From positions 1 to 59,511 of IMG/VR virus record IMGVR_UViG_3300003332_000138: a stretch of DNA of 59,511 nt; one strand, 5' to 3'. A program made the translations under genes and the position numbers. The notes under the pieces were generated by a model. That model saw only the letters and a list, made by a program, of their open reading frames with translations. It was not told the DNA's origin and did not search any database. This document shows, in pieces, positions 16,432-59,511 of the stretch. The stretch comes from a virus. Positions within the stretch are counted from its first letter, which is position 1. Every line of letters starts with the position of its first letter.

Positions 16432-16644
16432 GTGAGCAATACAATGATAAAAAGGCGTAGCCCGAAGGAAAAGATACTAGCCAAGATAGATGCGGAACTT
16501 GATGAAGTCCCCACGAAAAAGCTCACCGGTTCATTGTTGTTCAGGGTTGACTGCAGCCAGGGTGGATTATTAAAACTGAATATAACTACTGATGAAAATG
16601 TAGATATTTCTAATGGTAAATCAGAGGAAAGAAAAAGAAATTGA
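16432..16644 (+). CDS. Hypothetical small protein before the late region
   Basis: A 70-residue protein from a GTG with a moderate GGTGG site. It begins with a charged region, then a short beta-like section (SLLFRVDCSQGGLLKLNITT) and a charged tail. Its stop codon lies inside the -35 element of the promoter for the packaging genes. Confidence 0.5.
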   Translation: MSNTMIKRRSPKEKILAKIDAELDEVPTKKLTGSLLFRVDCSQGGLLKLNITTDENVDISNGKSEERKRN

Positions 16645-16669
16645 CAAAAAGAACAGAGTAACGGATAAT
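16641..16669 (+). promoter_or_regulatory. Late promoter for the packaging operon
   Basis: A perfect -35 TTGACA (16641-16646), 17-base spacer and -10 GATAAT (16664-16669). Transcription should start near 16676, giving a leader of about 116 bases before the terminase small-subunit ATG. The leader carries a small CCCCG/CGGGG hairpin (16706-16724) and the intrinsic terminator at 16732-16781. Confidence 0.65.
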
Positions 16670-16731
16670 ACCGACAATTGAATAACACTTACGGTTACTG
16701 ACAAACCCCGTTCACAATCCGGGGGATTTTG

Positions 16732-16781
16732 AGGCCCGTTCCTTTAGCGCAAATGCGTTTGAGGGACGGGCCTTTTTTTTT
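16732..16781 (+). terminator. Intrinsic terminator in the terminase leader
   Basis: A GC-rich stem with arms GGCCCGTTCC and GGGACGGGCC (one mismatch) followed by nine T (16773-16781), then GG and eight more T. The ATG of the terminase small subunit follows immediately at 16792. Transcription of that gene must read through this terminator. It is one of four similar leaders. Confidence 0.85.
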
Positions 16782-16791
16782 GGTTTTTTTT

Positions 16792-18949: not shown

Positions 18950-21199
18950 ATGAATGCTATGACAGAAACTAAAAAAATGGGGTGCAGCACACCTCAGTTG
19001 ATGTTGATCCTGCAGGAAATAGAGAATCAACCGGCATGGCGCACCCAGGCAGATAAGGAAGCTGATTATATCGATGGTAATCAGCTGGACAATGAAAAAC
19101 TGCAGGATCAGGTATCCAAGGGTATTGCCCCACTTATCGAAAATGTCATGGGTCGGGTTGTTAATGATATCAGAGGTATTGAGGCCAAGAACCACACGGA
19201 CCTGAAGGCCATTGCTGAAGATATGAAGGCGAATATCGATGTTGTTGATGCCGTTAATCAGAAACTTGCCAAGGCCGAGCGTGAATCAGGTGCTGATCGT
19301 GCTGTAACACTTGCCCATGCCAAGCAGATTGGTGTTGGTCTTGGATGGGCTGAGGTTGCCAGGGAACCGAATCCTTTTAAATTCCCCTACCGGGTGTCAG
19401 AGATTCACCGTAACGAAATATGGTGGGATATGCGCAGTCGGGAACCGGATCTGTCGGATGCTATGTGGCTGCTCAGAAAGAAATGGTCAAATGTTGAGGC
19501 CGTTGTTTCTCAGTTTAAAGGCAAAGAGCAAATGATTCGGGCGGCTTCTTCCACATCAACCAATTTCGATGAACTCACATTTGTAAGTGATGGTGGCGGT
19601 GAGACGGGACTAGGACAATCCCTTGATATAACCCGTGGCTGGACCATTGAGGAATCTGAATGGCGGGACTTTGAAACAAATCGTGTCTGTCTGATTGAGG
19701 TCTATACCAGGCATCATAGAACAGCCATCGTTTTCAAATTGCAGGACGGCAGAATCCTTGAATACGACAAGAAAGACGAGCTGCACAGGCAGGCCGTTCT
19801 TTCAGGTGTACAGCTTGTAAAAGCTACGGTATCCGATATCTACAAGACATTCTTTCTTGGCCCCCATGTTCTGCATGAAGAAAAGGTGAAGACCACCACT
19901 GGCAGGTTCCCATACATTCCATTTTTTGGTGAGCGCGAAGATAGAACGGGCATTCCTTTTGGTTCTGCCAGGAGCTTAATGTCTCAGCAGGATGAATTGA
20001 ATTCTCGTAACTCCCAGTTGTTTTGGGGGCTTGGTGCAGTGAGGACAAAACGCACGGAAGGTGCTGTGGCAATGTCAGATGCTGATTTCAGGCAGATGAT
20101 AGGCCGACGTGATGCTGATATTGTTTTAGACGAAAAGGCCATGCGGACGGGGGGAATCTTTGAAGTTGAAAGAGATTTCAACGCCAATTCTCAGCAGTTT
20201 GAACGGCTGAATGATATCAGGAATTCGATGCATACTGTTTCTGGTGTTTCTGAAAGTTTTCAGGGGCAGGGTGGATCTAATCAGACATCATCTGGTTTAT
20301 CCATGCAGATTGAGCAATCCCAGCAGAGCCTGGCCACAATAACAGACAACCTTCGGTATGCACGGATGATGCTGGGTGATGCCCTGATAGAGATGATCAT
20401 CGAAGACTTTGAGGATGATGAAGATGTCCTGATTGAGGGGAATATCCTCAAAGATGACAGGTGGGTGAAGATCAACGCTTCTACTGTGGATGAAGCAACC
20501 GGGAAAGCATACAAAACAAACGATGTGCAGCGGGTGAAGATTACCATGTCTCTTGCCGATGTTCCCAGCACTCCATCGTATAGACAACAGGCGTTATCAG
20601 CACTTACCGAGTTTGCCAAGAGCTCCAGTCCCGCTATTCAGCAGATTTTATCACCACATATTGCAGCTCTTGCAGAAGTACCCAACCGTGAGGAGATTGT
20701 TGAGGCTATTCGTAATGCGGAACATGCTCCGACTGAAGAGGAGATTGAACAGCAGATTAAAGATGCTGTTGACCAGGCTTTAATGAAGGCACAAACGGCT
20801 CTCAAGGAACAGGAGATTGCGCTCAAGACCAGAGAACTTGATATCAAAGAAGATGTTGGTATCGCTCAGATTCAAAAAATGCTGGCTGAGACTGTGAACA
20901 AGGCTATTGAATCTATCTACTCAGCGACTCAGGCAGGACGCGAGATAGCAGCAACTCCACAAATAGCAGGAGTTGCGGATCAGATTTTAGGTTCTGCAGG
21001 TTTTGAAGATAGTGATCTTCCACCGGTTATTGTTACTCCGGATGCGATGGTAAGTGAGTTATCTCCTGAACCAGCACAAAACACATCTCCCATGTTTCCA
21101 CCTCGAGTACAGGAACCTGATCTTGAGATGGCGGCAATGGAAGAAGATGCAGCACTGGAGAATCCTGGTGTTGGAATGCAGGAAGGAATTGAAGCATGA
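18950..21199 (+). CDS. Portal protein (P22-like)
   Basis: A 749-residue protein with P22 gp1-type features: an N-terminal helical region with IENVMGRVVNDIRGIEAKNH (~62-82), a WW-containing core (NEIWWDMRSREPDLSDA), FGSARSLMSQQDELNSRNSQ (~330-350) and a long C-terminal helical barrel with coiled coil (~590-660). It sits between terminase and scaffold, as in short-tailed phages. It forms the dodecameric vertex through which DNA is packaged and ejected. Confidence 0.93.
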   Translation: MNAMTETKKMGCSTPQLMLILQEIENQPAWRTQADKEADYIDGNQLDNEKLQDQVSKGIAPLIENVMGRVVNDIRGIEAKNHTDLKAIAEDMKANIDVVDAVNQKLAKAERESGADRAVTLAHAKQIGVGLGWAEVAREPNPFKFPYRVSEIHRNEIWWDMRSREPDLSDAMWLLRKKWSNVEAVVSQFKGKEQMIRAASSTSTNFDELTFVSDGGGETGLGQSLDITRGWTIEESEWRDFETNRVCLIEVYTRHHRTAIVFKLQDGRILEYDKKDELHRQAVLSGVQLVKATVSDIYKTFFLGPHVLHEEKVKTTTGRFPYIPFFGEREDRTGIPFGSARSLMSQQDELNSRNSQLFWGLGAVRTKRTEGAVAMSDADFRQMIGRRDADIVLDEKAMRTGGIFEVERDFNANSQQFERLNDIRNSMHTVSGVSESFQGQGGSNQTSSGLSMQIEQSQQSLATITDNLRYARMMLGDALIEMIIEDFEDDEDVLIEGNILKDDRWVKINASTVDEATGKAYKTNDVQRVKITMSLADVPSTPSYRQQALSALTEFAKSSSPAIQQILSPHIAALAEVPNREEIVEAIRNAEHAPTEEEIEQQIKDAVDQALMKAQTALKEQEIALKTRELDIKEDVGIAQIQKMLAETVNKAIESIYSATQAGREIAATPQIAGVADQILGSAGFEDSDLPPVIVTPDAMVSELSPEPAQNTSPMFPPRVQEPDLEMAAMEEDAALENPGVGMQEGIEA

Positions 21200-21267
21200 A
21201 ATAGAAAAATAATAAGAAGTATTTAACAATTGGGTTCCTCAGTTCTGGTTGATCCCCAGAACTGAGG
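21189..21267 (+). promoter_or_regulatory. Scaffold leader: weak promoter and 12-base-pair hairpin
   Basis: A weak promoter candidate (TTGAAG at 21189, TAATAA at 21210, spacer 15) would start transcription near 21222. A perfect 12-base stem CCTCAGTTCTGG/CCAGAACTGAGG (21237-21267, 7-base loop) follows. It has no T-run, so it is probably structural or regulatory rather than a terminator. Confidence 0.5.
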
Positions 21268-21281
21268 ACGTAAGACAAAAA

Positions 21282-21336
21282 AACCGCTGTATGGAGCGAA
21301 GGGGCCATACCCCCTTCTCTGTACGGCGGTTTTTTT
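21282..21336 (+). terminator. Intrinsic terminator in the scaffold leader
   Basis: Outer stem ACCGCTGTA/TACGGCGGT (with one G-U pair) and inner stem GAAGGGG/CCCCTTC, followed by seven T. An ATG sits immediately after the T-run at 21337, as at the other leaders. The 5' arm carries TGTATGGAGC, shared with two other late leaders. Confidence 0.8.
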
Positions 21337-21375
21337 ATGCCCAACATAAACACGTTACCTGGATGGGTGACGTAA
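21337..21375 (+). CDS. Possible 12-residue leader peptide
   Basis: An ATG directly after the T-run opens a 12-codon frame (MPNINTLPGWVT) ending 48 bases before the scaffold ATG. There is no strong ribosome site. Its place mirrors the start codons that abut the T-runs of the other late leaders. It could be a chance frame. Confidence 0.2.
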   Translation: MPNINTLPGWVT

Positions 21376-21423
21376 AAGAAATAACGCAGCCTGGATGGGC
21401 AGCGCAGAAAGAAGGTGGTGTGA

Positions 21424-24344: not shown

Positions 24345-24378
24345 AAAAATCGGGGTGGCTACGGCTTCCCCGATTTTT
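24345..24378. terminator. Bidirectional intrinsic terminator after head genes
   Basis: An 11-base perfect stem AAAAATCGGGG/CCCCGATTTTT with a 12-base loop, giving T-runs on both strands. It ends the head operon. The next gene starts 34 bases later with GGAAAGG upstream, so partial read-through is probable. Confidence 0.85.
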
Positions 24379-35854: not shown

Positions 35855-35885
35855 TTTTAGTAAATTGTTGGGTATATTCAAATGC

Positions 35886-35913
35886 TGGACTAAATGGGAA
35901 TATGTAATATACT
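35886..35913 (+). promoter_or_regulatory. Late promoter candidate before the ejection genes
   Basis: -35 TGGACT and -10 TATACT with a 16-base spacer, start expected near 35920. That gives a ~120-base leader to the ATG at 36041, close to the other late leaders. The sequence GAATATGTAATATACT resembles GAATATATGATACTAT in the fourth leader. A small ATCAC/GTGAT hairpin follows at about 35951-35965. Confidence 0.5.
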
Positions 35914-35980
35914 GAATTAACCAAAATTAATAATTCTGTCTACCTGGCTGATCACCGGCAGTGATAGAAGCAATATTCAA

Positions 35981-36022
35981 GGCACTTGTATGGGAGCTTC
36001 CCGCACAAGTGCCTTTTTTTTT
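35981..36022 (+). terminator. Intrinsic terminator in the ejection-gene leader
   Basis: Outer stem GGCACTTGT/ACAAGTGCC (9 base pairs, perfect), inner GGGA/TCCC with GCT loop, then nine T. The next gene's ATG is only 18 bases beyond, with GGAG between. The 5' arm contains TTGTATGGGAGC, nearly the same as in the fourth leader. Confidence 0.9.
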
Positions 36023-36040
36023 GCAAAATGGAGATATGTC

Positions 36041-37237
36041 ATGGCTGAGAAAGAAAAGAGAAAACGTGAACCAAATTTTACGCCTGTGAGTAGTGAAGAT
36101 TATGCCGCTATTCGTTCAGGAAAAAAACCGGTCGGATTTGGTGCTAGGGCAAAACAGATCCAAGCTGCGCAACCATCTGTCTCACAAATAGCAGATACTG
36201 CCAATAAGACTCTCGTTGATCCTCTGTTGGAACCGGTTAAGAGCGCAGGCAGAGCATTTTTTAAAGGGACTGGAATTGAAGAAGATTTCAACAGAAATAA
36301 TGAAACCCGAAGACAAAGGTCACAACCGGAACGTGGAGCCATAACAGTTGGTGAGGCGAGTAAATTGGAATCACCAATACCTTTTGTTGGTGGAGCAAGA
36401 CCGGTGCCGGTTGTGCAGGGCACGCAGTCAGTAGCGCAACCTGTTATCGAGCAAGGGGAAAATAAAACTTCACTTACCGGAAACAATGTCAGTGGACCTG
36501 AAATAGTACAGGACGTAGCCGATAATGGTGACAAAACGTATTCATTAACTCAGGACGATGGTGGCTATGGAACTATGACTGTCCATGGTAACGATCGTTC
36601 GACAGGATTTGGAGCTGTGCGGCAATCTCCAGCGCAAAAGGAAGCACAGGCCATGACAGAAAGGTTTCAATCTGCCGTGCAACGTACTCCTGAAGGTGAT
36701 GAGGCTCGTAGACAGCAACATGCCGAGTGGCTTGGTAGGCAATCTGGCGGGGCTGTTGGTGGGGCGAGGGCAAGAGAAGAGTATTTGAGAAGAAAAGAAG
36801 GTCTTGAAAAAGAAAAAGTTAGGACAGACCGGGAGTCGTCACTTGCGAATCGGGAAATCGATGTTCAGGAAGGTGAAATCAAACAGAATGCTGATGCAGC
36901 TGCCGCCACAGAGGCAGGGATAAACAGCAGGTTCGACAAAGAGATTGAGTATAAAAAATCAACAGCATCAAGTAATTCTGCAACGCTGTCACCAGCGGCT
37001 CAATTAAAAGGCCGGATGGCGATTAGGAAGCAACATCAATCCTACGCCAAAGATCAACTTGGGCAGGAGGTGTTAAACTTTGAGGATTGGCTCGGGACTG
37101 TGTATTCACCGGCTGACCTGAACGCTTATGGGCTTTCGGGTAGTGACATGAAAGGGCCATTAGCAGATTTGGAAGAAAATCCTGCACTTGCTTTACAATT
37201 TAAACAGAAATACGGATACCTACCACAAGGTTATTGA
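36041..37237 (+). CDS. Internal virion (ejection-like) protein
   Basis: A 398-residue hydrophilic protein, Gln- and Ala-rich, with little predicted fold in the N-terminal half and a long charged helix (~225-310). An upstream in-frame ATG at 35990 lies within the terminator hairpin, so I use 36041, which has GGAG seven bases before it. It immediately precedes the giant polyvalent gene, the usual position of ejection proteins. Function inferred from place and composition. Confidence 0.6.
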   Translation: MAEKEKRKREPNFTPVSSEDYAAIRSGKKPVGFGARAKQIQAAQPSVSQIADTANKTLVDPLLEPVKSAGRAFFKGTGIEEDFNRNNETRRQRSQPERGAITVGEASKLESPIPFVGGARPVPVVQGTQSVAQPVIEQGENKTSLTGNNVSGPEIVQDVADNGDKTYSLTQDDGGYGTMTVHGNDRSTGFGAVRQSPAQKEAQAMTERFQSAVQRTPEGDEARRQQHAEWLGRQSGGAVGGARAREEYLRRKEGLEKEKVRTDRESSLANREIDVQEGEIKQNADAAAATEAGINSRFDKEIEYKKSTASSNSATLSPAAQLKGRMAIRKQHQSYAKDQLGQEVLNFEDWLGTVYSPADLNAYGLSGSDMKGPLADLEENPALALQFKQKYGYLPQGY

Positions 37238-37238
37238 T

Positions 37239-40200: not shown

Positions 40201-43200
40201 ACAATATGAGGGAAACAGAAGCCAATCTTTTGGAACGGCAACAGAAGAAGTCTAAAGAAAAAAGAAAAAAAGGAGAACAAGATGGGATTCGGGGCGATGT
40301 TGAAAAATCTGGCAACGGGGACAACGGAAGCGGAACGGCAGGAAATGAAGGAATTACTGACAAAGACTCCGGACGCACAAGCGGCAATGGACAGGTTGCC
40401 CAAGGAACAGCCGACCAAACCCCAGCCGAAGAAAAAGAAGAAGGAGCGATTCGGAGCGGTGGAGCTATCAGCAGTTCAGAGAAGGAATCAGGCAACGAAG
40501 GAGTCTCTGGATTATTAAAAACTGTCGATAATGAAAAATCTGCATACGGGAAAAACAATACTCTTGTTTCCAAGAGCAGAGCTGACGAGATCCGGGCAAA
40601 ACTGAAAGAAAAGTTGAATCAGCTTTCTTCTGGTATTGACCCTGAAATGATTTCCCTTGGTACCGAGCTCGCTGTTTTCCATATTGAGGCCGGAGCCCGG
40701 AAGTTTACAGATTTTTCCAAGGCCATGATTAATGATCTTGGTGATAAGATAAAGCCTTTCCTCCGTTCTTTTTATGAGGGTGCCAGGTATTATCCTGGTC
40801 TTGACAATAAAGGGATGAGTGGCGCTGAAGAAATTGAAAGTGCAAGTACCTCTGATGTTACCGACAAGAATGTCGGAGACAAAACTGAGAAAGACAAAGT
40901 AGACGGGTCGATAGGTTTAAACCCTGATGGTCAAAATGTCTTTATTGATAAGAACGGGAACCGGCAACATGAAGATGGTACTTTCCTTGTCGGATCGTCT
41001 GTTGCGATTGATCTTGCGGGTAATGGGATTGTAGTTAAATCTCCCCAAATGCTTTTTGAGAGGGGTGATACTCAATTTCTTACCGTTGAGGAAGTCGCTG
41101 AGTTTAAAAATGCGGAAACTGGACAAACAAAGCCTGAAAGTGGTACAATAGAGGCAGGAGGAAAGAAAAATGAGCCAATACTCGCAGATGTCCAGGGAGT
41201 TTCTGAAGACAAACAATCCGGAAGAACTGGAAAGATTAAAGACGGAAGGCAAACTTCAGGAGTTCGAGAAGGATCTGACGGAACTGTACGAGGACCAGGA
41301 ACAGACAATAATCGGACAGATGACAAAGGAACTTCCGGAAAATTACGAGGACAGGGCAGTAAGTCTGAAACAAGCAAAGATGGTAGCAAGGGAGCAGTCG
41401 AGAGCAGACATGAGGGAGTTTCTGCAAGGCCTGTAGACTACCATATCACCGATTCTGATTCTCTTGGTTCTGGCGGTGCGACTACCAAAGCCAGAGCAAA
41501 CATCAAAGCAATCAGAATTCTCAAGAACATCCAAAAAGAAAAACGTCCAGCCACACCCGAAGAACAGAAGGCACTCGTCAAATATGTTGGGTGGGGCTCT
41601 TCTGAACTCGCTAACGGAATTTTTCCCGTAAAAAAATGGAGCCATGACTCCAGGAAGTTAGAGCCCACATATAAAAAAGGTTGGGCTACCATGGGTAAGG
41701 AACTTGAAACACTCCTTACAAAAGAAGAATACGCAGACGCCAAGCGTTCAACTCTGAATGCTCATTACACTTCCAAAGAAGTTATTGACGGTATGTACTC
41801 AGCCCTTGAGCAGTTTGGTTACAAGGGTGGCGGCAGGGCCATTGAACCCGGTAGTGGTGTCGGCCATTTTGTCGGGCTCCTTCCTGAAAACATGCCTGAT
41901 ACCCAGTTTACAACTATCGAAATGGATTCGATTTCTGCTGGAATAGCAGAGGCACTCTATCCAAATCACGATATCCGCAATCAAGATTATTCAAAGTTTA
42001 AAGCACCTAAAAACTTTTTCGATTTTGCAATCGGCAATCCTCCTTTTGACAGTATCCCCGTGACCACAGACAAGGAGTATGCAAAGCACAAGTTTGCACT
42101 CCATGACTTTTTCTTTGCTAAAACCATTGACCGGGTTCGGCCTGGTGGTGTGATGATGCTTGTTACCAGCAGGTACACAATGGACAAGTCCGGAGATAAG
42201 GCTCGTCATTATCTTAGTCAACGAGCTGATTTCCTTGGTGCGATCAGATTACCACAAACAGCTTTCAAAAAAAATGCAGGGACCGACGTTGTTACTGATG
42301 TAATTTTCCTTCAAAAGCGAGAAGAAGGGAAAGCGAAAGGCGGTTTACCGTGGAATAGCCTCAAAACGATCAAGGCGAAGGATAAGAACAAGAATACTCA
42401 TGAATTTAGTATCAACGAATACTTTGCGGATAATCCTGAAATGGTACTTGGCTCTCATGCGGCAGAAGGCAGTATGTATAGTGGCAACGAGTACACAGTG
42501 AAACCAAAACAGGGCGAAATCGGAGAACACTTCTCTAAAGCAGTTCAAAACCTCCCCAAAGATATCTATGAGCAGGGTGAAACAGTAACGGATCAGGAAG
42601 TCGCTGAAATTGAATTTGCACCTGACATTATAAAGGAAGGTGCTTTTTTCCTCGATGCAAAAGGAAACGTTCTCCTTAAAGAGGATGGTGTCGGCCAAGC
42701 TGTGTCAACGGCAAAAGGGAAGAAGAAGGCTCTTATTAAAAACTTCATAACACTTCGTGATGCGGTACGTGAAGTGCTTTATGTTCAGCTCTCTGAAACT
42801 GGTAGCTTGAAAGCTGCCCAGAGAAACCTAAACAAAGCATACAACGGTTTTGTTGAAAAGCATGGCCCAATTAACAAGGCCACAAAAGTTACCAGGACAT
42901 TGAACGATGGTGCCGAATCAATCAGCTATCGTTATCCGAATTTCCAGCCTTTCAGCATGGACCCAGATTCTTACCGGGTCGCTGCAATAGAGATTTATGA
43001 CCTTGAAACTGGAAAAACAAAGAAGGCTGATATCTTCACCGAGCGTGTCATATCCCCTGCAGTAGAGCCTAAAGTCGAATCGTTGACAGATGCTCTCCAT
43101 GTAAGCATGTATCAGAATGGTAGGGTTGATATTCCGGCAATTGCAGGACTTATGGACGTATCAGAACAAGAGGCGATTGATGGCCTTGGTGATGCAATCT

Positions 43201-46200
43201 TTCACGATCCTGATGGCAGAAAGTGGGTGACGGATGATGAATATCTTTCCGGGAATGTAAGAGAGAAGTTGGTAAACGCCAAAGATGCGGCAGAGGTTGA
43301 TAAAAAATATAAGCGTAACGTAAAGGCTCTTGAATCTGTCCAACCGGAAGACTTGCCTGCATCCAGGGTAACTATTTCTCTTGGTATGCCCATTATCAAC
43401 AAAAAATATATTGAAAAGTTTGCTTCGGAAGTTCTTGAAATGGATATTGCCGTTTCCCAGGCTCCCTTAACGAATGATTGGAAAGTCGTTGCTCACAGCG
43501 GTCAGGAAGCTGCAACGGCAACCAGTGATTACGGTACTCCTCGAAGAAACGCAGCAGCATTGCTTGACCACGCCCTTAACGGGAAATCTGTCACTGTCCG
43601 TGATCAAGATTCAGACGGGAAAACCTGGGTGAATAAAACTGCAACGGAAACAGCAAATGCAAAACTCCAGAAGTTAAAAACAAAATTCACCACCTGGATA
43701 TGGGAAGATGCAACCAGGGCCGATAATCTCCTAAGAAGATACAACGACGAATATAATAATATCGTAAAGCGTGAATACGGGGGCGACCATATTAATGTTA
43801 TGACCTTCCCCGGTCTGAGTAGTTCTATTAAACCATACGATCACCAGAAACGGGCGGCATGGCGTATTATCCAGAGTGGCAACACCTATATGGCTCACAG
43901 TGTTGGCGCAGGAAAGACAATTGCGTCAATCATTGCAGGGATGGAACAGAAGAGGCTTGGAATAAAGAAAAAGCCTGTTTGGGTTGTTCCTAATCACATG
44001 CTTAAACAATTCTCCAGTGAATTTCTTGAAACATATCCTGCAGCAAAGATCCTTGTAGCAGACGAGCAACAATTTACAGCGAAAAACCGTAACCGATTTA
44101 TGGGCAAGGTCGCTGTTGAGAATTGGGACGCTATTATCATTACCCATTCAGCTTTCAAGAAAATTCCAATGTCTGCAGAGTTTCAGGCTCAGTTTATCGA
44201 AGAGCAGCTTGACGAGGTGGAAATCTTCATGCAGGAGGCAAAGGACGAAGGCGAGTATGCCAAAACAAAACAGATCGAACGCCAGAAAAAGAAATTACAG
44301 GCTCAACTTGAAAAGATAATGTCTGGCGCCGAAAAAGATAAAGGCGTGACATTTGAGGAAACTGGCATCGATCAAATATATGTTGATGAAGCTCAAGAGT
44401 ACCGCAAGTTAAGTTTTGTAACCAAGAAAGGAGATTTGAAAGGTATTGATCCCAACGGGTCACAGCTTGCTTTCGATTTGTATACAAAAACTCAGTACCT
44501 TGAATCACAGACTCCTGGACGTTCACTTGTGCTGATGAGCGGTACACCAGTAACCAATACCCTTGGGGAAGTCTTTGCAATCCAGAGATTCTTGCAAGGT
44601 GACAAACTTAAAGACCTTGGAATTGATTACTTTGATGGCTGGGCGGCTACTTTTGGTGATACTGTCACGAATATTGAAGCCACACCAGCAGGGACGTATA
44701 AGCCTGTCACAAGGTTTGCTAAATTTAACAACATGGCAGCGCTTTCAAATATGTGGGCCGAGATTGGTGATTATGTCCATGCTAAGGACTTACATTATAT
44801 TACTCGCCCAAGTGTTATTGGCGGGTCCAGGAATGTTGTTATTGGTGAATCTAGTTCTATCCAGAAAGCATACAAGAAAGCCCTCGGTGAGAGAATTAAA
44901 ACTATTGAGGCCAGATCAGGCAAACCGGAAAAGGGCCAAGATATAATCCTTTCAGTTATTACCGATGGTAGACATGCCGCCATGGATGATAAATATATAG
45001 ATCCAGCTGCTCCGGTCCGAGAAGATTCAAAAATGACAAAGATGCTCGGCAATATAGAAAAAATATGGCGTGATACTGCAGACAATAAATCGACACAGAT
45101 GGTTTTTGCCGACCTTGGTATGCCAGGTTCCCTTGAAAAACGAGGGTTTTCTACATATCTCCACATTAAAGAGGAATTAATCAGAAGCGGCATTCCTGAA
45201 AACGAAATTGTTTTCATGCAGGATTACAAAAAATCAGACCAGAAGATAAAGCTCTACAAAGACCTTAATGCCGGGAAGGTTCGTATTATTATCGGCTCTT
45301 CTCAGTCCATGGGAACGGGTGTTAATGCTCAGAAACGCCTTGTTGCCCTCCATCATTTTGACCCAAACAGTTACTTGCCTTCTAATATTGAGCAGAGGGA
45401 AGGGCGTATAGTCAGACAGGGTAATACCAACGACAAAGTACATCTTTACGCTTACGTGACCAGGGGCAGCTATGACGAGACAATGTGGCAATTCCTGGAG
45501 ACTAAGCAGAGGTTTATTGATCAATTCCTTTCCGGAAAGGTTGGCGATGATTCTGTCTCTGACATAGATGGCGCTTCCAATAGTTATGCAATGGCAAAGG
45601 CCATGTCTTCCGATAATCCGCTTATTCTTGAGATGGCAGGGGTGGAAAATGAATTAAACACCTTAAAGTCACTTTACACCGGGCATCTTGATTCGCAGCG
45701 AAGTTTAAGATTTGGAAAATCAAGAGCCCAGCGGGGAATCGAATCTAACGAAAAACTTGTAAAAAGGATCGAGGCGGCGCTCAAAAATCGTATACCGACA
45801 AAAGGAGATGCCTTTGGGATGAAGGTTGACGGTGTTGATTACTCTGACAGGAACAAAGCAGGTAAAGCGTTTATCCAAAGACAGATTGATATGATAGACG
45901 GTAAAATCAGGTTTAATGAAATGGTAAAACTTGGTGATATTGCAGGGTTTGGAGTTTGGGGAACTAATGTCGGGATGAAAGGCAGTTACGCCTCAAAAAT
46001 AACTGTTGTTGATAAAGAATCTGGCCTTGTTGTCACTGACATTGCCTGGGCAACAAAACCAGAGCTCAAAGAGGCAAGTCCATCCGGAATAGTAAGGCAA
46101 TTGGAGAACCAGGCGCAAGGACTTGATCGCAGGCTTGAACGTGTAAAAGAAGAAATTGAAAAGGATTATGGTGTGATCAAGGGCGCGGATGAGCGCATTG

Positions 46201-49200
46201 GTGCAAAGTTTGAGTATCAAGATACTCTGGAAGAGAAACAAAAACGCCTTGAAGAGATACAGGACGAACTTGAGAAGGCAGAGAACGACAACGCTGGACT
46301 GGATGACGATTCTGAGGTAAAACTTTCCATAGGTGAAAAAACAAAAGCAGTAAATATTCCGATAATTGGAGAAGATACCAGTGATGACGGACAAAGAGAT
46401 GCGGAAACTCTTGAAAGAAGCATCAAAAAAGGACGCAAAAGGGCCGGTAAGGACACGGACAGAGGAAGAGGACATATCACGGCTGTCAACGTGCACCCTA
46501 AGCTTTCCGAAGGGCTGGAGAAAATCGCAAAAGTCTTCGGCAAAAGAGTAGTTTTTGTTAAAGATGGCGGTTCCGGACTTCTAAACAGTAGCGGTTATGC
46601 TATTGTCTCTGTTAATCCTGACGTTCTTTATATCAATACCGAGAACGACTACCTACCTACCACCGTTCTTGGCCACGAATTATTGCATCATCTTAGCAAT
46701 GACAGGCCAGGGCTCTATAACACTTTTAAAAATGTTCTTTTTTCAGGCAACATCATTAATAAGGAAAAATGGAATGAATTTAAAAGTGACTACAATGACC
46801 GTCTTGCTAAAATCGGTTTTGCCCCGATATCTGAAAGCGGTATCCAAGAGGAGTATGTTGCAGATTTTCTAGGGGATCTTGTCTCTGATAAAACTTTCTG
46901 GAACCAGCTCGCAAAAGAAAATCCTGGAATTTTTAAACGGCTTGCAAAGGCCGTTATTAAATTTTTTGATAGCATTATTTCCAAATTCAAGACAACCATT
47001 CCTGGGGCAGAATCGGACAAATTCTTTAAGGACATGGTTTTTGCCCGTAAACTTGCTACTGCAGTTTTGGCTGATTACGCTGGTGGGGTTAACACTCCTA
47101 GCGACACATCAAATCCCAATATAAAGCATTCTTTACCAAAGAAAGAATCTGGTGGAGATAAAACTTTTAATCAGACTCTCGCAGAAGTTGCACCTGGAGC
47201 CGTGAAATATATAAAGGCTGAAAAGCCGGATATGAACTTTCTGGAGATTCTTTTCTCGACTCCTGAGTATGCTTTTAAGAAATTCGGTGCAGCCTGGCGT
47301 GTATTACAGGCCCAACTTGACAGAAGGGATCTGAAAAACGACCTTGAGAATGATATCCTTGGAGAAAACTACAAGGATAAAGATGGGAATCTTATTGAAC
47401 AGGGAGAATTTTTTGATAAGTCCAATAAACTCAAGAAAGAGAACGTCGAATCCTATAATAAAGTTTCAGGGTATCTCGTTGGAGCAGATCAGACTGGTGA
47501 CGGATATCGAATAAAGAATGAGCTTGAAGAATGGGTAGTAAAGGACCGGCAGAAAAAAGTTGTAGAACGTTTTAAAATAAGCGAGCATCCGGAAGGAGAG
47601 GCTGAAGCTCTTGCTGTTGAATCTATGCGGCAGCACGAAGCTGCTGACTTGAGAAGCGAGGGATTTAATGAAGAGGAGGTTCGGCTTGTTCTCCTTTCCA
47701 GGAAGCTGACAAACAGGGCTTTTGATCTACTGATTGCTGATTTGCGCAAAATTGAGCAGGAAGCAAAAGAGGCTGGGCTCCCGACTCCTGCGCTTGGTGA
47801 AATAGATGAAGCTGGCCGCTATGGTGTGTATAACGGTAAGAAGTTGATTGCAGCCTACGAAAGCCAGGAAGAGGCAGCAGACAGTTTAAGTAATGCGGCA
47901 AAGGTTATCTCCTATGCAATCTACTCTAAAAAAGGCGGTGCTGTTGTCCGTGGGGATTTTACACAGCGGGACAAAGCGGAAGCTTGGGCAGCAAAGAATG
48001 ATATCGAAATTCGGGAGAAGGGTTCCTTCACCGTTAAGAGTAAGGGGAAATACACAAAACTTGAGATCCGGAAAAGAACTGATGATGAACTCCGGCCGCT
48101 TACTATTCAGGAAGCCATTGCCCAGATGAATGATCTTCGGGGTGTATTCTTTCCTCGTCTGCGTGAACCCGGCGCTTATGTGATGATTGCAAAAAAGGAT
48201 GGTTCTAATCCTATTCGCGAACATTTTGATATAGCAGGGCTCGATGATACGAAAGGTTGGAAGGCTACCAGGCTCATTAAAAAAGCTATCAACTCAGGGA
48301 CACCTGCAGGACGAAGAATTAAAGAGTTACGTTCCCAAGGATACGATGTAACGCTCAAAAAAGATGATTCGATTTCAGAAGATGTTTTTGACGCGACCAG
48401 ACTGACCAGTTCCCTCGATGCAATCCTGCAGCAGGCCATGAGTGTTGCAGATAAAAACGACTCAGATCAACTGGAGATGGGGAAACAGATTAACAAAATT
48501 CTCACTCTGCAAGTTGCTGATATCTTCAAGGCCCGTGGTTACCTTTCCACACGTATGAAACGTACAGAAGAAGTATGGGAAGGGTATGAGGAAGATATGC
48601 AGAAAGCCCTTGTTCAGTACGGGCGTAATCTGGCGGCTGGTGTGGCCAAGCGTGATACAGCACAAAAGATGATCCTTGCCTTTACTGGAAAGGACTACAG
48701 CTGGAACGATTATAAAAATGATGTGGGTGAAGCGGCCGACTGGGACGAATACAGCAAGATCGTAGAGAAAAGACGTGTTGACCCGGGTAAACAGAAAGTT
48801 CTTTTCAGCCAGGTGCGAAAGTTCATCATAGATGTTTTACGCAATGATGAGCAGGCCGACAGGGTTATGGGATTCATGAAGGGGCTTGCTGCTGTAAAGT
48901 TCCTTGGCTTTCGTATCAGTTCTGCTGCAATCAATATGACAAATATGGTACAGGCTGTTCCTGCAACTATTTCGGCTAACACCGATGACTCCATCCTGAA
49001 GTCGCTGAACCGTGTGAAACATGCTGTTACTGTCTACACGCAATACAGAACCAAAAAAGGGAAGATATCAGAAACGGACAGAGATATTTTTCAGGATATC
49101 ACAAGCAGGGGATGGGACCAGGCGCAATATAATATGGAACTGGCTTCTGCTTTGAAATCTAAACTTGGTGACCGGTGGGCGAAATTCACCGACGCATCTA

Positions 49201-50270
49201 TGTTTCTATTTGGTGCCGCAGAAAAGGTGAACCGGGCAACAACCATCTTTGCAGCCTATAAGGCTGTAGAGAAGCAGCGTCCGAATATGTCGCATGATGA
49301 TATTATGGCAGAAGCCAAGTATATCAGTGATCGGGCTCATGGCGTGTATGGCAAAGAAACTATGCCTGCATGGGCAAGGGGAGCATATAACCCCATGAAA
49401 CTTGCTTACACATTCCAGAAGTTTTCCCATAACTATATGCTGAATATGCTGGAAATGGGATTTAGCAAACAGGATTGGAAGGCTGTAAGTTATATGCTGC
49501 TCTCTCCTGCTATCCTTGGTGGTACCGGTGCGACATTGGCAACGCCCATGATAGCAGCAATGGCCTCGGCACTTGGTATAGGTGGTGATGATCCTGAAGA
49601 AGCGTTTTACTCCTGGGTAGAAGAAACCTTTGGAAGTGATCGCATGGCAAGGCATGGTTTGCCGGGGATGGCAGGGGTGAACTTTAAAGGGTCCCTGCAG
49701 ATGCACAACCCTATGCCTCGTAAGTTGAGCGAGATCGGTGGAGCACCACAAGGAGTTTTGACAGATCTTTGGAAAGGCTCTAAACACTTTCTTGATGGTA
49801 AAATCTATAAGGGGTTTGAATCCATGGCTCCAACAGCCTTTGGCAATATGTCAAAAGCTGTCAGGGAGAGCAGGGAAGGTGTGACCACAGGCTCTTACTC
49901 TTCAGTGTATTATGGTAACGAACCATTAAAAGCTAACACATTGGACGCTGTTGTCAGGTTTCTTTCGTTTAATCCTTCACGACTTTCAGGAATACGTGAG
50001 AAGCAGTGGAGTGAGAAAAAGGTTTATAAGAAGTATCAAGAGCGCAGAAAAAAAATAAACTCCAGAATCAAAAAAGAATGGCTGCAGTCCAATGGGGATA
50101 TCCCGGATAAAGTCTGGGGTGAGATATGGAAAGAAGTGTTCCGCTACAATGATCTGGTACGTGGATCAGGGCGCAGTGATATCAGTCCTATTACAGCAAG
50201 AAGTATCAGAAACCTTATCCGTAGATCACTGCGAGCCCCAAAGCGTGAGCGTTTGAGGATGGCTGTATGA
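37239..50270 (+). CDS. Giant polyvalent (DarB-like) protein: MTase, SNF2-type helicase, peptidase
   Basis: A 4343-residue protein co-delivered with DNA in related phages. Residues ~143-188 are Gly/Ala-rich and hydrophobic. Residues ~679-808 match the inorganic-pyrophosphatase-like polyvalent domain (GSVGYDKDHVDVFF). A winged-helix-like part lies at ~922-985. An N6-adenine MTase lies at ~1405-1695 with NPPF at 1600. An SNF2-type helicase has AHSVGAGKT (2219-2227), DEAQ (2383-2386), SGTP (2434-2437) and EQREGRIVRQ (2718-2727). A zincin-like HELLHH is at 3146-3151. The C-terminal ~450 residues resemble other polyvalent proteins. Role in anti-restriction is inferred from P1 DarB. Confidence 0.92.
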   Translation: MAENHFDKFDAEEKNVPPVSEGNHFDRFDQSATGAPRESAGANENQGSDSIPEDRGIVGDTVSHLARGGANLAKMVGGAMRVADLNPDDNDGFMDRAGQKLIDMGESAPKHAKIFRPDQREAQGEEGFAKRTYGMALESAPASLTPMATAAVGAGIGSFAGPVGTVVGGGLGLLGGIIGTFGMGTYNEARTTALKHLKKTRPELSKNEVTQMAHDNGMSHALYEVGTEALGDIAAMATFGMGKVFFHTAKNGVKATLKGVLAGGPKEFSKKFAKAYVTDMPFEAGSEILAYYGQSKADEKIGIGEGATGKGMLEAAGTAAWMSGILGGGISGYNAVQSRKVMKSLNSDDVVIRERAANTIAGDISRNLDDKKIAKQWRVEAQNAIASGEKIPLDEKIVDFGKEKVAEDNGTASSTQEVPPPTDRQAPPDVEQKPQGVIAKAADKAPVQADSNSGAEAPGFGAIPGNVPPEGEEQKTIFKAINAVPEETFETIVKTKGQDETTTQANQEGEDQGLQKNKGEGEAQAEIETHTLPDGRLINKLTGEIVDPPKKTIEEEYNEYSPDLPPTDNILPEGLTGKAAVDFVKAKSEGLDDQGAENYARLNNGTPKKGEQGEEKIQQNVDGVSSEPAAVKEESKTTERSAGETKRVEVVNNSKSVAHGQEVDTAPSEKQKEAENYKKGHVRLDGMDITIENPAGSTRSGTDQTGNEWSQKLKHDYGYVKGSVGYDKDHVDVFFANGYTGGAGKVHIVNQHNQDGSFDEHKVVIGARTKGAARQTYLSNYEKGWKGGKSVVEMPMDEFKQWVKGEGPSKGKLVTDGTEKTGGSTGSNGSNPDTVNNPPTQDIIEHTTKKGKVIKGIVLTDITMGEAKEIDKYTFRKDGGFFIREKHLKVEEKVLEQTSAKIDEEKPETVKSDEPDKPKANKLTPRQKEAMEWFNAGQSVGEEGMNKGVDGYKGRIRPAILKKLEEKGLIEFLGGFDEWYSVEVIERDNMRETEANLLERQQKKSKEKRKKGEQDGIRGDVEKSGNGDNGSGTAGNEGITDKDSGRTSGNGQVAQGTADQTPAEEKEEGAIRSGGAISSSEKESGNEGVSGLLKTVDNEKSAYGKNNTLVSKSRADEIRAKLKEKLNQLSSGIDPEMISLGTELAVFHIEAGARKFTDFSKAMINDLGDKIKPFLRSFYEGARYYPGLDNKGMSGAEEIESASTSDVTDKNVGDKTEKDKVDGSIGLNPDGQNVFIDKNGNRQHEDGTFLVGSSVAIDLAGNGIVVKSPQMLFERGDTQFLTVEEVAEFKNAETGQTKPESGTIEAGGKKNEPILADVQGVSEDKQSGRTGKIKDGRQTSGVREGSDGTVRGPGTDNNRTDDKGTSGKLRGQGSKSETSKDGSKGAVESRHEGVSARPVDYHITDSDSLGSGGATTKARANIKAIRILKNIQKEKRPATPEEQKALVKYVGWGSSELANGIFPVKKWSHDSRKLEPTYKKGWATMGKELETLLTKEEYADAKRSTLNAHYTSKEVIDGMYSALEQFGYKGGGRAIEPGSGVGHFVGLLPENMPDTQFTTIEMDSISAGIAEALYPNHDIRNQDYSKFKAPKNFFDFAIGNPPFDSIPVTTDKEYAKHKFALHDFFFAKTIDRVRPGGVMMLVTSRYTMDKSGDKARHYLSQRADFLGAIRLPQTAFKKNAGTDVVTDVIFLQKREEGKAKGGLPWNSLKTIKAKDKNKNTHEFSINEYFADNPEMVLGSHAAEGSMYSGNEYTVKPKQGEIGEHFSKAVQNLPKDIYEQGETVTDQEVAEIEFAPDIIKEGAFFLDAKGNVLLKEDGVGQAVSTAKGKKKALIKNFITLRDAVREVLYVQLSETGSLKAAQRNLNKAYNGFVEKHGPINKATKVTRTLNDGAESISYRYPNFQPFSMDPDSYRVAAIEIYDLETGKTKKADIFTERVISPAVEPKVESLTDALHVSMYQNGRVDIPAIAGLMDVSEQEAIDGLGDAIFHDPDGRKWVTDDEYLSGNVREKLVNAKDAAEVDKKYKRNVKALESVQPEDLPASRVTISLGMPIINKKYIEKFASEVLEMDIAVSQAPLTNDWKVVAHSGQEAATATSDYGTPRRNAAALLDHALNGKSVTVRDQDSDGKTWVNKTATETANAKLQKLKTKFTTWIWEDATRADNLLRRYNDEYNNIVKREYGGDHINVMTFPGLSSSIKPYDHQKRAAWRIIQSGNTYMAHSVGAGKTIASIIAGMEQKRLGIKKKPVWVVPNHMLKQFSSEFLETYPAAKILVADEQQFTAKNRNRFMGKVAVENWDAIIITHSAFKKIPMSAEFQAQFIEEQLDEVEIFMQEAKDEGEYAKTKQIERQKKKLQAQLEKIMSGAEKDKGVTFEETGIDQIYVDEAQEYRKLSFVTKKGDLKGIDPNGSQLAFDLYTKTQYLESQTPGRSLVLMSGTPVTNTLGEVFAIQRFLQGDKLKDLGIDYFDGWAATFGDTVTNIEATPAGTYKPVTRFAKFNNMAALSNMWAEIGDYVHAKDLHYITRPSVIGGSRNVVIGESSSIQKAYKKALGERIKTIEARSGKPEKGQDIILSVITDGRHAAMDDKYIDPAAPVREDSKMTKMLGNIEKIWRDTADNKSTQMVFADLGMPGSLEKRGFSTYLHIKEELIRSGIPENEIVFMQDYKKSDQKIKLYKDLNAGKVRIIIGSSQSMGTGVNAQKRLVALHHFDPNSYLPSNIEQREGRIVRQGNTNDKVHLYAYVTRGSYDETMWQFLETKQRFIDQFLSGKVGDDSVSDIDGASNSYAMAKAMSSDNPLILEMAGVENELNTLKSLYTGHLDSQRSLRFGKSRAQRGIESNEKLVKRIEAALKNRIPTKGDAFGMKVDGVDYSDRNKAGKAFIQRQIDMIDGKIRFNEMVKLGDIAGFGVWGTNVGMKGSYASKITVVDKESGLVVTDIAWATKPELKEASPSGIVRQLENQAQGLDRRLERVKEEIEKDYGVIKGADERIGAKFEYQDTLEEKQKRLEEIQDELEKAENDNAGLDDDSEVKLSIGEKTKAVNIPIIGEDTSDDGQRDAETLERSIKKGRKRAGKDTDRGRGHITAVNVHPKLSEGLEKIAKVFGKRVVFVKDGGSGLLNSSGYAIVSVNPDVLYINTENDYLPTTVLGHELLHHLSNDRPGLYNTFKNVLFSGNIINKEKWNEFKSDYNDRLAKIGFAPISESGIQEEYVADFLGDLVSDKTFWNQLAKENPGIFKRLAKAVIKFFDSIISKFKTTIPGAESDKFFKDMVFARKLATAVLADYAGGVNTPSDTSNPNIKHSLPKKESGGDKTFNQTLAEVAPGAVKYIKAEKPDMNFLEILFSTPEYAFKKFGAAWRVLQAQLDRRDLKNDLENDILGENYKDKDGNLIEQGEFFDKSNKLKKENVESYNKVSGYLVGADQTGDGYRIKNELEEWVVKDRQKKVVERFKISEHPEGEAEALAVESMRQHEAADLRSEGFNEEEVRLVLLSRKLTNRAFDLLIADLRKIEQEAKEAGLPTPALGEIDEAGRYGVYNGKKLIAAYESQEEAADSLSNAAKVISYAIYSKKGGAVVRGDFTQRDKAEAWAAKNDIEIREKGSFTVKSKGKYTKLEIRKRTDDELRPLTIQEAIAQMNDLRGVFFPRLREPGAYVMIAKKDGSNPIREHFDIAGLDDTKGWKATRLIKKAINSGTPAGRRIKELRSQGYDVTLKKDDSISEDVFDATRLTSSLDAILQQAMSVADKNDSDQLEMGKQINKILTLQVADIFKARGYLSTRMKRTEEVWEGYEEDMQKALVQYGRNLAAGVAKRDTAQKMILAFTGKDYSWNDYKNDVGEAADWDEYSKIVEKRRVDPGKQKVLFSQVRKFIIDVLRNDEQADRVMGFMKGLAAVKFLGFRISSAAINMTNMVQAVPATISANTDDSILKSLNRVKHAVTVYTQYRTKKGKISETDRDIFQDITSRGWDQAQYNMELASALKSKLGDRWAKFTDASMFLFGAAEKVNRATTIFAAYKAVEKQRPNMSHDDIMAEAKYISDRAHGVYGKETMPAWARGAYNPMKLAYTFQKFSHNYMLNMLEMGFSKQDWKAVSYMLLSPAILGGTGATLATPMIAAMASALGIGGDDPEEAFYSWVEETFGSDRMARHGLPGMAGVNFKGSLQMHNPMPRKLSEIGGAPQGVLTDLWKGSKHFLDGKIYKGFESMAPTAFGNMSKAVRESREGVTTGSYSSVYYGNEPLKANTLDAVVRFLSFNPSRLSGIREKQWSEKKVYKKYQERRKKINSRIKKEWLQSNGDIPDKVWGEIWKEVFRYNDLVRGSGRSDISPITARSIRNLIRRSLRAPKRERLRMAV

Positions 50271-50280
50271 TTAAAAGCAT

Positions 50281-50308
50281 TTGTATCGTAGCGAATATAT
50301 GATACTAT
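50281..50308 (+). promoter_or_regulatory. Late promoter candidate before the fibre genes
   Basis: -35 TTGTAT and -10 TACTAT with a 16-base spacer, start expected near 50315, ~113 bases before the ATG at 50428. A GGTGA/TCACC hairpin (50340-50356) follows. The architecture equals the other late leaders. Confidence 0.5.
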
Positions 50309-50373
50309 AGCCAAAACAATAAAATAGAATTTTGCCCATGGTGACTGATCATCACCTGCGCAGACTTAATTAA

Positions 50374-50418
50374 GGCCGCTTGTATGGAAGCTTTTCCATA
50401 TTTGCGGCCTTTTTTTTT
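50374..50418 (+). terminator. Intrinsic terminator in the fibre-gene leader
   Basis: Outer stem GGCCGC/GCGGCC, an internal TTG/TTT bulge, inner stem TATGGAA/TTCCATA with a GCTT loop, then nine T. The gene's ATG follows nine bases after the T-run, with only GGGA as a ribosome site. It is the most symmetrical of the four late-leader terminators. Confidence 0.92.
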
Positions 50419-50427
50419 GGGAAAAAT

Positions 50428-51999
50428 ATGGCAGCTCCATCATACACCACTGACCTTGTTACTCTCGCTATAGGTGATCTTGGCACTGAATCATGGGACG
50501 AATCATCAAACGCCGCATATGATGATGGTGGTGCGATGGTTGATGATAGTAACCTTTATTATAACGGTTCGTCTTGTGTCTCAGCACAGTTCACTAAGGA
50601 TGGTATAGCCACTATCCTTATGGATTATGGTTCTGGAGTTACAATACCTGCTGATGGTGCAGTCTTGATTCATCATCTTTGGGCTGCTCCACCAGCTCTT
50701 GCGACTCTTGCGCTTGGTGGTGTTCGTATAATGGTTGGTGATAGCCTTGGTGATTTATACGGTTGGCCTTGTTCTGGCTCTGATGCCCCTCCATCCCCTC
50801 GCGGTGGTTGGGCAAACTATGCAATAAATCCTGCTATCGGTTCTCCGGTTTACACTGTTGGGACTCCTACTGGAGCATACAGCGTGTTTGGAATTGCCGT
50901 ATCGGCAACAGCCCAGGCCCGTGGTAATCCAAATGCCTGCAATGCTGTGCGCTATGGCAGATGCACATCAATCTACGAACATGGCGAAGCAGCCAATTAC
51001 GCCACTTTTGCAGGGTATGCTGCCATAGACAGTCTTTCGGCAAACAAGTGGAATCTCCTTGACCCGGTAAAAGGCGGCTACGAGCATCAAGGCCTGATGT
51101 CCCTTGGCACCGCCACCAATGCTGTTGATTTCAGGGATGCAAATGTAAATATTTCCATTGCTGATACCATTAATGTGACTGCGGCGTTTAATAGGGTTGA
51201 GGTGAACAACGCCTCTTCCAATATTGAATGGACAGCTGTTTCAATCTCTGCCCTGGGGACGACATCAAAGGGAAATTTTGTGGCCGTGGACAATGCGACC
51301 ATAGTCAAGACCTCCTGTACCTTTACTGATATGGACTCGTTTACCTATCAGACCAACTCTACCATTCTTTCTACCACCCATCGCCGTTGCGGATTAATCA
51401 CTCAGGGCGGGGCCACCATGACATCTGGCACCGTTGACAAACCAAGCGGATCTGTGGGGATGCTGGCCAGTAGTCTGAACGCTGTCACAAAATACACTTT
51501 CAATTCTGATGGCACAGGACATGCGGTTGATCTTGGCACTGTATCAGGAAACACATCTGTTACCTGGGACAACAGCGACAATGGGTACACCGATGCGTCG
51601 TCTGGAAATGAGACGATTGTTGTCAGTGTTGATAATGGAATCACTTTGACAATCAATGTTGCGGAAGGTGCTAGTACCCCATCAGTTTATAACACTGGGA
51701 CGGGAACGGTGGATGTCGTCTCCGGCTTGGTAACTATTACGATCTCATCACCGGTCAGTTTGGTTGGTGCCGAGGTGCGACTATACGACATGGACAATAT
51801 CCCGGATGGAAGCCTTGGGACTGAATTGTCTGGCGTAGAATCCCACACATCAGCAACTTACACATACTCAGGTTCTGGAGGTAATCTTATTTGGATACAA
51901 ATCATGTTAGACGGTTACGAGGAATTTGGGCAGCAATACACGATGCCAGCATCTGACACTACTTTTACGGCACTTTTAAATCTTGACTTAAACAAATAG
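50428..51999 (+). CDS. Tail or fibre protein
   Basis: A 523-residue beta-rich protein, dominated by Ser, Thr, Gly and Asn with little Lys, as in receptor-binding or tail-spike parts. The C-terminal ~100 residues resemble an Ig-like or carbohydrate-binding beta-sandwich (VYNTGTGTVDVVSG, VRLYDMDNIPDG). An in-frame TTG at 50380 inside the hairpin is rejected. It is followed after nine bases by another structural gene. Confidence 0.6.
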   Translation: MAAPSYTTDLVTLAIGDLGTESWDESSNAAYDDGGAMVDDSNLYYNGSSCVSAQFTKDGIATILMDYGSGVTIPADGAVLIHHLWAAPPALATLALGGVRIMVGDSLGDLYGWPCSGSDAPPSPRGGWANYAINPAIGSPVYTVGTPTGAYSVFGIAVSATAQARGNPNACNAVRYGRCTSIYEHGEAANYATFAGYAAIDSLSANKWNLLDPVKGGYEHQGLMSLGTATNAVDFRDANVNISIADTINVTAAFNRVEVNNASSNIEWTAVSISALGTTSKGNFVAVDNATIVKTSCTFTDMDSFTYQTNSTILSTTHRRCGLITQGGATMTSGTVDKPSGSVGMLASSLNAVTKYTFNSDGTGHAVDLGTVSGNTSVTWDNSDNGYTDASSGNETIVVSVDNGITLTINVAEGASTPSVYNTGTGTVDVVSGLVTITISSPVSLVGAEVRLYDMDNIPDGSLGTELSGVESHTSATYTYSGSGGNLIWIQIMLDGYEEFGQQYTMPASDTTFTALLNLDLNK

Positions 52000-58836: not shown

Positions 58837-58911
58837 TGGTGACCCCAAGGGGAATCGAACCCCTGTTCCCGGCGTGAGAGGCCGGTGTCCTGACCGCTAG
58901 ACGATGGGGCC
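58837..58911 (-). tRNA. tRNA-Glu (anticodon CTC)
   Basis: On the minus strand a complete 75-base cloverleaf: acceptor GGCCCCA pairs with TGGGGTC (one G-U), anticodon stem CCGGC/GCCGG with loop CTCTCAC (anticodon CTC), T-loop GTTCGATTC, and an encoded CCA at the 3' end. Its 3' end faces the phage, the usual orientation of an integration site. Confidence 0.96.
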
Positions 58912-58965
58912 ATGATAGAGAGCGTTTTTACCTGTTTGGCTGAAACTTGTCAAGCTTTAGTTCCA

Positions 58966-59511
58966 TCACCTTTTGAGTTTGTTTGTGGATAGATTGTGGT
59001 CGTTAGTAAGTTGTGTGCCAAATCGAATACAGGACGCCAGCACATCCTTTTTGTTTTTAATAGCATCGATTTCTTCTACATTATTTATGAGCAAAGGTGC
59101 GCCATACTTTATGTCTAAAGTATCACAAAGGCATTGTATAACAAGTTCAGTCCCAGAAAATAATTTTTCACCTTTTGTAGCTGCACAGCTGAGTAGATAG
59201 CCTGAACGATTGATTGCTTGTGGCTGAACATTATGTAATAAATATTTCCGTGCCCATTGTGCCTGGCATCGGTCTATAAAAGTTTTTAGCTGTGCACTGA
59301 CGGAATAGAAATATATAGGGCTCACAAAAAAGAGTCGATGGGCCTCATCAATTTTATTATACAGCTCAGACATATCATCATTTATTATGCATTTTCCAGT
59401 CTTATTGCATCCTCCACATCCCTGACAAGGTTGAATATTAAGACTGTTCAGGTAAATATATTCCACACTGTTATGGGGAGATTGTAATATCCCACTGGCA
59501 ACTGCTTGTGC
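58966..59511 (-). CDS. Flavodoxin-family (NADPH-dependent FMN reductase-like) protein, partial
   Basis: 181 codons are visible; the reading frame is open to the window edge and the N-terminus is missing. The segment CQGCGGCNKTGKCIINDDM (~29-47 of the visible part) and FFVSPIYFYSVSAQLKTFID (~61-80) match the flavodoxin-fold NADPH-dependent oxidoreductases with extra Cys. The Cys cluster suggests a redox role or iron-sulfur-adjacent site. It is a host gene beyond the prophage. Confidence 0.85.
   Translation of the reverse strand, partial: AQAVASGILQSPHNSVEYIYLNSLNIQPCQGCGGCNKTGKCIINDDMSELYNKIDEAHRLFFVSPIYFYSVSAQLKTFIDRCQAQWARKYLLHNVQPQAINRSGYLLSCAATKGEKLFSGTELVIQCLCDTLDIKYGAPLLINNVEEIDAIKNKKDVLASCIRFGTQLTNDHNLSTNKLKR

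What the first reader, a model, noticed from the sequence alone, without database searches (positions are those of the whole stretch)
50281..50428. Four late leaders share one plan: promoter, hairpin, strong terminator, then start codon
Before the terminase (16641-16792), scaffold (21189-21337), ejection (35886-36041) and fibre (50281-50428) genes I see a promoter-like element ~115-120 bases ahead of a start codon, a small hairpin, and a strong intrinsic terminator with 7-9 T. In three cases the T-run ends within 20 bases of the gene's ATG, so no promoter can lie between. Each block must therefore be expressed through its own terminator. This looks like a coordinated attenuation or antitermination switch, or a set of RNA processing sites at 5' ends of late messages.
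Basis: partly seen in the sequence, partly recalled or inferred. Interest (0 to 1): 0.75.

Follow-up and report, generated by a model that had tools for sequence, protein, structure and literature searches.

The report
Terminator-gated leaders before four late operons
Four blocks of late genes in this prophage each sit right behind a strong transcription stop signal, and a short sequence shared by the best two of these leaders recurs in the same place in three other virus groups, so the virus probably turns on its late genes by overriding several stop signals rather than one.

Summary
The four strongest plus-strand intrinsic terminators of the window stand directly before the terminase, scaffold, putative ejection and putative fibre genes; shuffled sequence almost never yields one. 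Three leave only 9-18 bases before the ATG, so those genes must be reached by read-through. The promoter is convincing only at the terminase leader, marginal at the ejection leader, and not demonstrable at the scaffold or fibre leaders. The small hairpin is significant at the scaffold leader, nominal at the fibre leader, and not significant at the other two.

New here: a motif, CGG(T/C)NACTGA, 32-40 bases before the terminator stem. It is exact at the terminase leader, one mismatch off at the fibre leader, and degenerate at the other two, which share a CTGG(T/C)TGATC hairpin instead. The same plan occurs before portal and capsid genes of one phage group, before the portal of an unrelated podovirus, and twice in a third phage, including the fibre-equivalent position. 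No shared motif lies in the promoter region. Most relatives lack the plan; F116-like phages carry another motif in corresponding gaps.

Best reading: terminator-gated late operons opened by an antitermination factor or RNA acting at a transcribed element. No factor was identified and nothing has been measured.

The parts
16641..16669 (+). sigma-70-type promoter TTGACA-17-GATAAT of the terminase leader
   Evidence: 11 of 12 consensus matches; none of 300 shuffles scores as well
16692..16701 (+). leader element CGGTTACTGA, 39 nt before the terminator stem, followed by a small CCCCG...CGGGG hairpin at 16706-16724
   Evidence: motif shared by nine leaders; the hairpin alone is not significant
16731..16781 (+). 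intrinsic terminator with T9; terminase small-subunit ATG follows at 16792
   Evidence: PHROG 1206 terminase small subunit
21189..21215 (+). weak promoter-like stretch of the scaffold leader
   Evidence: not distinguishable from shuffles, p 0.65
21237..21267 (+). 12-bp hairpin with loop TTGATCC, holding CTGGTTGATC 32 nt before the terminator stem
   Evidence: z -4.5 against shuffles
21277..21336 (+). terminator with T7 before the scaffold gene (ATG 21424)
35886..35913 (+). promoter-like TGGACT-16-TATACT of the ejection leader
   Evidence: 9 of 12; p 0.12
35934..35969 (+). hairpin holding CTGGCTGATC, 34 nt before the terminator stem
   Evidence: fold (p 0.09)
35978..36022 (+). terminator with T9 before the putative ejection gene (ATG 36041)
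50281..50309 (+). promoter-like stretch of the fibre leader
   Evidence: not distinguishable from shuffles, p 0.32; not listed
50331..50364 (+). hairpin holding the element TGGTGACTGA at 50339-50348, 33 nt before the terminator stem
   Evidence: one mismatch to CGGTNACTGA; hairpin p 0.03; motif
50372..50418 (+). terminator with T9 before the putative fibre gene (ATG 50428)
   Evidence: a like leader lies after the giant ORF of G001

Best explanation
The late region is split into four units, each gated by an intrinsic terminator directly in front of its first gene. Without the lytic signal, RNA polymerase starting in or reading into a leader stops at the terminator and yields a short RNA. In the lytic phase a phage or host antitermination factor, or the leader RNA itself, acts at a transcribed element (CGGTNACTGA, or the related CTGGYTGATC hairpin) 32-40 nt before the terminator stem and lets polymerase through the gates. 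Shown: terminators, positions, the shared element and its recurrence. Inferred: termination, read-through, timing, a promoter at every leader, and the factor.
For: Four exceptional terminators at four late gene starts with no room for a promoter behind three of them. Motif 33-40 nt before the stem in the clear cases, score 80.8 against 62.1 +/- 2.1 for nine leaders and 67.8 against 54.5 +/- 2.0 without L178; none in the promoter or initially transcribed region. Plan recurs in the L074/L154/L155/L156 group before portal and capsid genes, in L178 before an unrelated portal, twice in G001. IMG/VR scan for the strict pattern: four contigs, all of one group. A strong promoter ahead of the terminase gate would otherwise be wasteful.
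Against: No antiterminator recognised. Promoters not demonstrable at scaffold and fibre leaders. Element degenerate at scaffold and ejection leaders, 3 mismatches. Most relatives lack the plan. No transcription data.
Confidence: 0.5

Rival explanations
1. Insulators: the terminators only stop stray transcription from upstream genes into late genes, which are served by incomplete termination or by promoters not recognised here.
For: Terminators before operons are common in phages; Y7 has a terminator ahead of its late promoter motif at the terminase gap. Promoter evidence is weak at two leaders.
Against: No room for a promoter behind three terminators; a strong promoter lies ahead of the terminase terminator; does not explain the shared element.
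Confidence: 0.17
2. Q/AlpA-type antitermination: a phage protein binds DNA inside each late promoter and loads onto polymerase there; the leader element is incidental.
For: Layout matches AlpA targets: promoter, terminator 26-54 nt after the start, first gene directly behind (PMC7969949). The terminase promoter is strong.
Against: No shared motif in the promoter region, z -0.6 and -1.2; no Q or AlpA family match; AlpA site GGGACGN5GGTA absent. A factor with degenerate sites could be missed.
Confidence: 0.13
3. Activator site: the element is a DNA site for a late activator, as the F116 motif may be, with transcription starting inside or after the hairpin, so that the terminator stops only upstream transcription.
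For: F116-like phages have a conserved motif in corresponding gaps with -10-like sequences downstream in some; the element is DNA-conserved and at a near-constant distance.
Against: No consistent -10-like hexamer by eye at the right distance downstream of the element (not scored statistically); the start would fall in a GC-rich stem.
Confidence: 0.12
4. Small RNAs or 5' UTR structures: the hairpins make stable short RNAs, or processed or stabilised 5' ends, with late mRNAs arising by partial read-through.
For: Promoter, hairpin and terminator form a complete sRNA unit; Gifsy-1 IsrK is such a dual RNA (PMC4825925).
Against: No Rfam match reached its gathering score in the leaders; does not by itself explain four copies at late gene starts.
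Confidence: 0.08

Closest known systems
AlpA-controlled operons of Pseudomonas aeruginosa (PMC7969949, PMC9371919)
   Same: Promoter, intrinsic terminator tens of nt after the start site, first gene directly behind; more than one operon under one antiterminator
   Different: AlpA binds between -35 and -10; here the shared motif lies in the leader near the terminator, and no AlpA-like protein or site was found
Lambda Q and its late promoter pR' with terminator tR'
   Same: Late genes gated by a leader terminator
   Different: One late operon in lambda; Q needs a promoter-embedded site; here up to four units and no Q homologue recognised
HK022 put RNA (PMC9378689)
   Same: A transcribed element upstream of terminators, possibly with no phage protein needed
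   Different: put is about 70 nt with two stem-loops in two early operons; here a short motif with variable hairpins before late genes; homology to put not tested
Multi-unit late control of F116-like phages (this work) and late activators of P2- or Mu-like phages (own knowledge)
   Same: Several late units under one shared signal; F116-like gaps correspond in position
   Different: P2 and Mu activate initiation; the F116 motif CCCCCTGTARGGTT is not the element found here

Membership tests
Lambda Q / AlpA antitermination | Shared DNA binding element inside the late promoters | tested here: not met
   No motif above shuffles in the promoter region of nine leaders; AlpA site absent
Lambda Q / AlpA antitermination | A Q- or AlpA-family protein encoded by the phage | tested here: not met
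   No match in Pfam or PHROGs among scanned window proteins; a few small early ORFs were scanned in one library only, and Q proteins can lack sequence similarity
Lambda Q / AlpA antitermination | Intrinsic terminator between late promoter and first gene | tested here: inconclusive
   Terminator present in all four; promoter clear only at the terminase
HK022 put RNA | About 70-nt RNA of two stem-loops, similar to putL/putR, that binds the beta' zinc-binding domain | not tested
   No put alignment or model was at hand; whether Rfam holds a put family was not checked
Lambda N / nut | boxA followed by a boxB hairpin | tested here: not met
   Best boxA match has 3-4 of 8 mismatches in every leader
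RfaH / ops | ops sequence GGCGGTAGNNTG in the leader | tested here: not met
   4-6 mismatches at best
Any antitermination system | Measured termination and its relief | not testable with these tools
   Needs Term-seq and reporter assays

The most novel reading that the evidence does not exclude
A previously undescribed antitermination element, a 10-nt transcribed signal plus hairpin, exchanged between unrelated podoviruses and used as a multi-gate late switch, acting either as RNA or through a new class of factor.
Probability: 0.3. Interest if true: 0.78.

Novelty: new variant of a known kind. Interest (0 to 1): 0.57.

Why it matters
The antitermination switches I know gate one or two operons per phage. 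A phage that gates four late units through copies of a shared leader signal would show antitermination used as a regulon-wide switch, in place of the late activators of P2- or Mu-like phages, and the element gives a direct handle for finding the factor.

Tried and rejected
Relatives were sought by portal, large terminase, ejection, capsid and fibre proteins; the tail gene at 33938 gave none. No DNA-level relative of 35500-50700 in phage records. A shared 7-nt loop (CTGATCA) as the general element was dropped: it fits three leaders at most. Window-wide counts of CGGTNACTGA with one mismatch do not exceed chance (13 against 8.9), so only its place before terminators is informative. Pattern search in 399 genomes of the phylum of a Parazoarcus genome: 7 genomes matched, about the rate of the reversed-pattern control; judged chance by reading the matched sequences. 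The looser IMG/VR scan gave 34 stretches; most have no terminator, and L178 was the only new convincing one. A covariance model was not built because the alignment of terminator stems was poor. Structure models of two candidate genes had pLDDT 48 and 38 and were not searched. Promoter scoring stopped with an error before the L154 and capsid leaders were scored.

Full report
What the window is. A virus record of 59,511 bases: a temperate podovirus-like genome with repressor, antirepressor, integrase, replication genes, terminase, portal, capsid protein, a 4,360-codon giant ORF, tail genes and endolysin, ending beside a tRNA-Glu and a minus-strand gene with an FMN-reductase domain that may be host DNA. 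Its portal is about 40% identical to those of F116-like Pseudomonas phages, Pseudoalteromonas phage Y7, Shewanella phage Y11 and Burkholderiales prophages. The host is unknown.

The observation. The four terminators are real and exceptional: the only + strand hairpins of at most -20 kcal/mol with seven or more T, against one in 20 whole-window shuffles. Each lies in the gap before a late gene; three end 9-18 bases before the ATG. The promoter claim holds at the terminase leader (TTGACA-17-GATAAT), is marginal at the ejection leader, and cannot be told from chance at the scaffold and fibre leaders. The small hairpin is significant alone only at the scaffold leader and nominal at the fibre leader.

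Likeness among the four leaders. Scaffold, ejection and fibre terminators share TGTATGG in the 5' part of the hairpin. Scaffold and ejection leaders share CTGG(T/C)TGATC at 32 and 34 nt before the stem. This suggests, but does not prove, that leader cassettes were copied or kept alike within this genome.

Relatives. Scanning relatives for strong terminators at gene starts, without using any motif, found the plan before portal and capsid genes in L074, L076 and L114 (capsid protein 62-64% identical) and before the small terminase gene of L061. An exact scan of IMG/VR for GGTTACTGAC-N50-80-T8GG returned four contigs, all in that first group, one of them new (L154). A looser scan added L178, a podovirus with a different portal family, with CGGTTACTGA, a CCCC-GGGG hairpin and a T9 terminator before its portal. 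Reading the whole L061 contig (G001) revealed a second leader, T9 and -36 kcal/mol, directly after its giant ORF, the place of the window's fibre leader.

The shared element. Motif discovery over nine leaders gives CGG(T/C)NACTGA, 32-40 nt before the stem except at the scaffold and ejection leaders (21 and 23), score 80.8 against 62.1 +/- 2.1 in shuffles. Without L178, which was found by the motif, it is 67.8 against 54.5 +/- 2.0. L074 was found by its terminator, not by the motif. An earlier run on seven leaders agrees. The motif widths and regions were chosen after looking at the sequences, so the scores are not strict significance levels. The promoter region and the initially transcribed region share nothing above chance. 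That argues against a Q- or AlpA-type promoter site and for a transcribed signal, though not conclusively: some leaders may have no promoter, and the alignment is by terminator, not by transcription start.

Limits of conservation. The plan is not general. L070, with a capsid protein 85% identical, has a small hairpin but no terminator before its scaffold gene. L059, terminase 70% identical, has a promoter-like sequence but no terminator before its small terminase gene. A strict pattern found leaders in only two of 50 relatives' records; it missed the two of G001, so it undercounts. The fibre gene of L147 and L148 has no such leader. F116, 8P, Y7 and Y11 carry (C/T)GTARGGNT-like motifs in several corresponding late gaps, so a split of the late region into several units seems the older trait, and terminator gating one way to control it.

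Mechanism. Since the genes behind three terminators can only be reached through them, some relief of termination is needed. A single processive event at the terminase leader would suffice in principle; the repeated elements suggest that each gate loads its own factor. Candidates are a put-like RNA, a small RNA-binding protein, or a specialised elongation factor. None was identified: most window proteins were scanned against PHROGs, Pfam or both, and structure models of two genes upstream of the terminase were too poor to use.

Literature. AlpA relieves terminators that begin 26 and 54 nt after the start sites of two operons, before their first genes (PMC7969949). GafZ does the like for a gene transfer agent cluster (PMC11150451). 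HK022 put acts as RNA (PMC9378689). In the library searched I found no report of a phage with several terminator-gated late units; subscription papers are largely missing from it.

Verdict. Observation partly confirmed, interpretation partly supported, with new comparative evidence for a shared leader element. New variant of a known kind; probability of the antitermination reading about one half.

Noticed in passing
L055 (13749, 22476, 33964, 41361), L056 (18900), L057 (7433, 13386, 30436, 43907), L058 (4938, 24361, 41836): F116-like phages carry a (C/T)GTARGGNT motif, C-rich just upstream in the Pseudomonas phages, in several late intergenic gaps (terminase, scaffold, ejection, holin), perhaps a late promoter or activator site.
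   Followed up: partly
window 24346-24378: A weaker bidirectional terminator (about -22 kcal/mol, T5) after the capsid genes; many relatives have a terminator at the same place, so it looks like an ordinary operon feature.
   Followed up: partly
window 21337-21424: A 12-codon ORF starts at the end of the scaffold T-run, and CCTGGATGGG is repeated twice between it and the scaffold ATG.
   Followed up: no
window 16782-16792: The small-terminase ATG directly follows GGTTTTTTTT, with no Shine-Dalgarno sequence in sight.
   Followed up: no
window 58837-59466 (minus strand): tRNA-Glu (CTC) beside a gene with an FMN-reductase domain, perhaps host DNA next to an attachment site.
   Followed up: no
L061, about 9320-9330: The L061 small-terminase leader also carries GTAAGGTT upstream of its promoter-like sequence, resembling the F116-type motif.
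   Followed up: no
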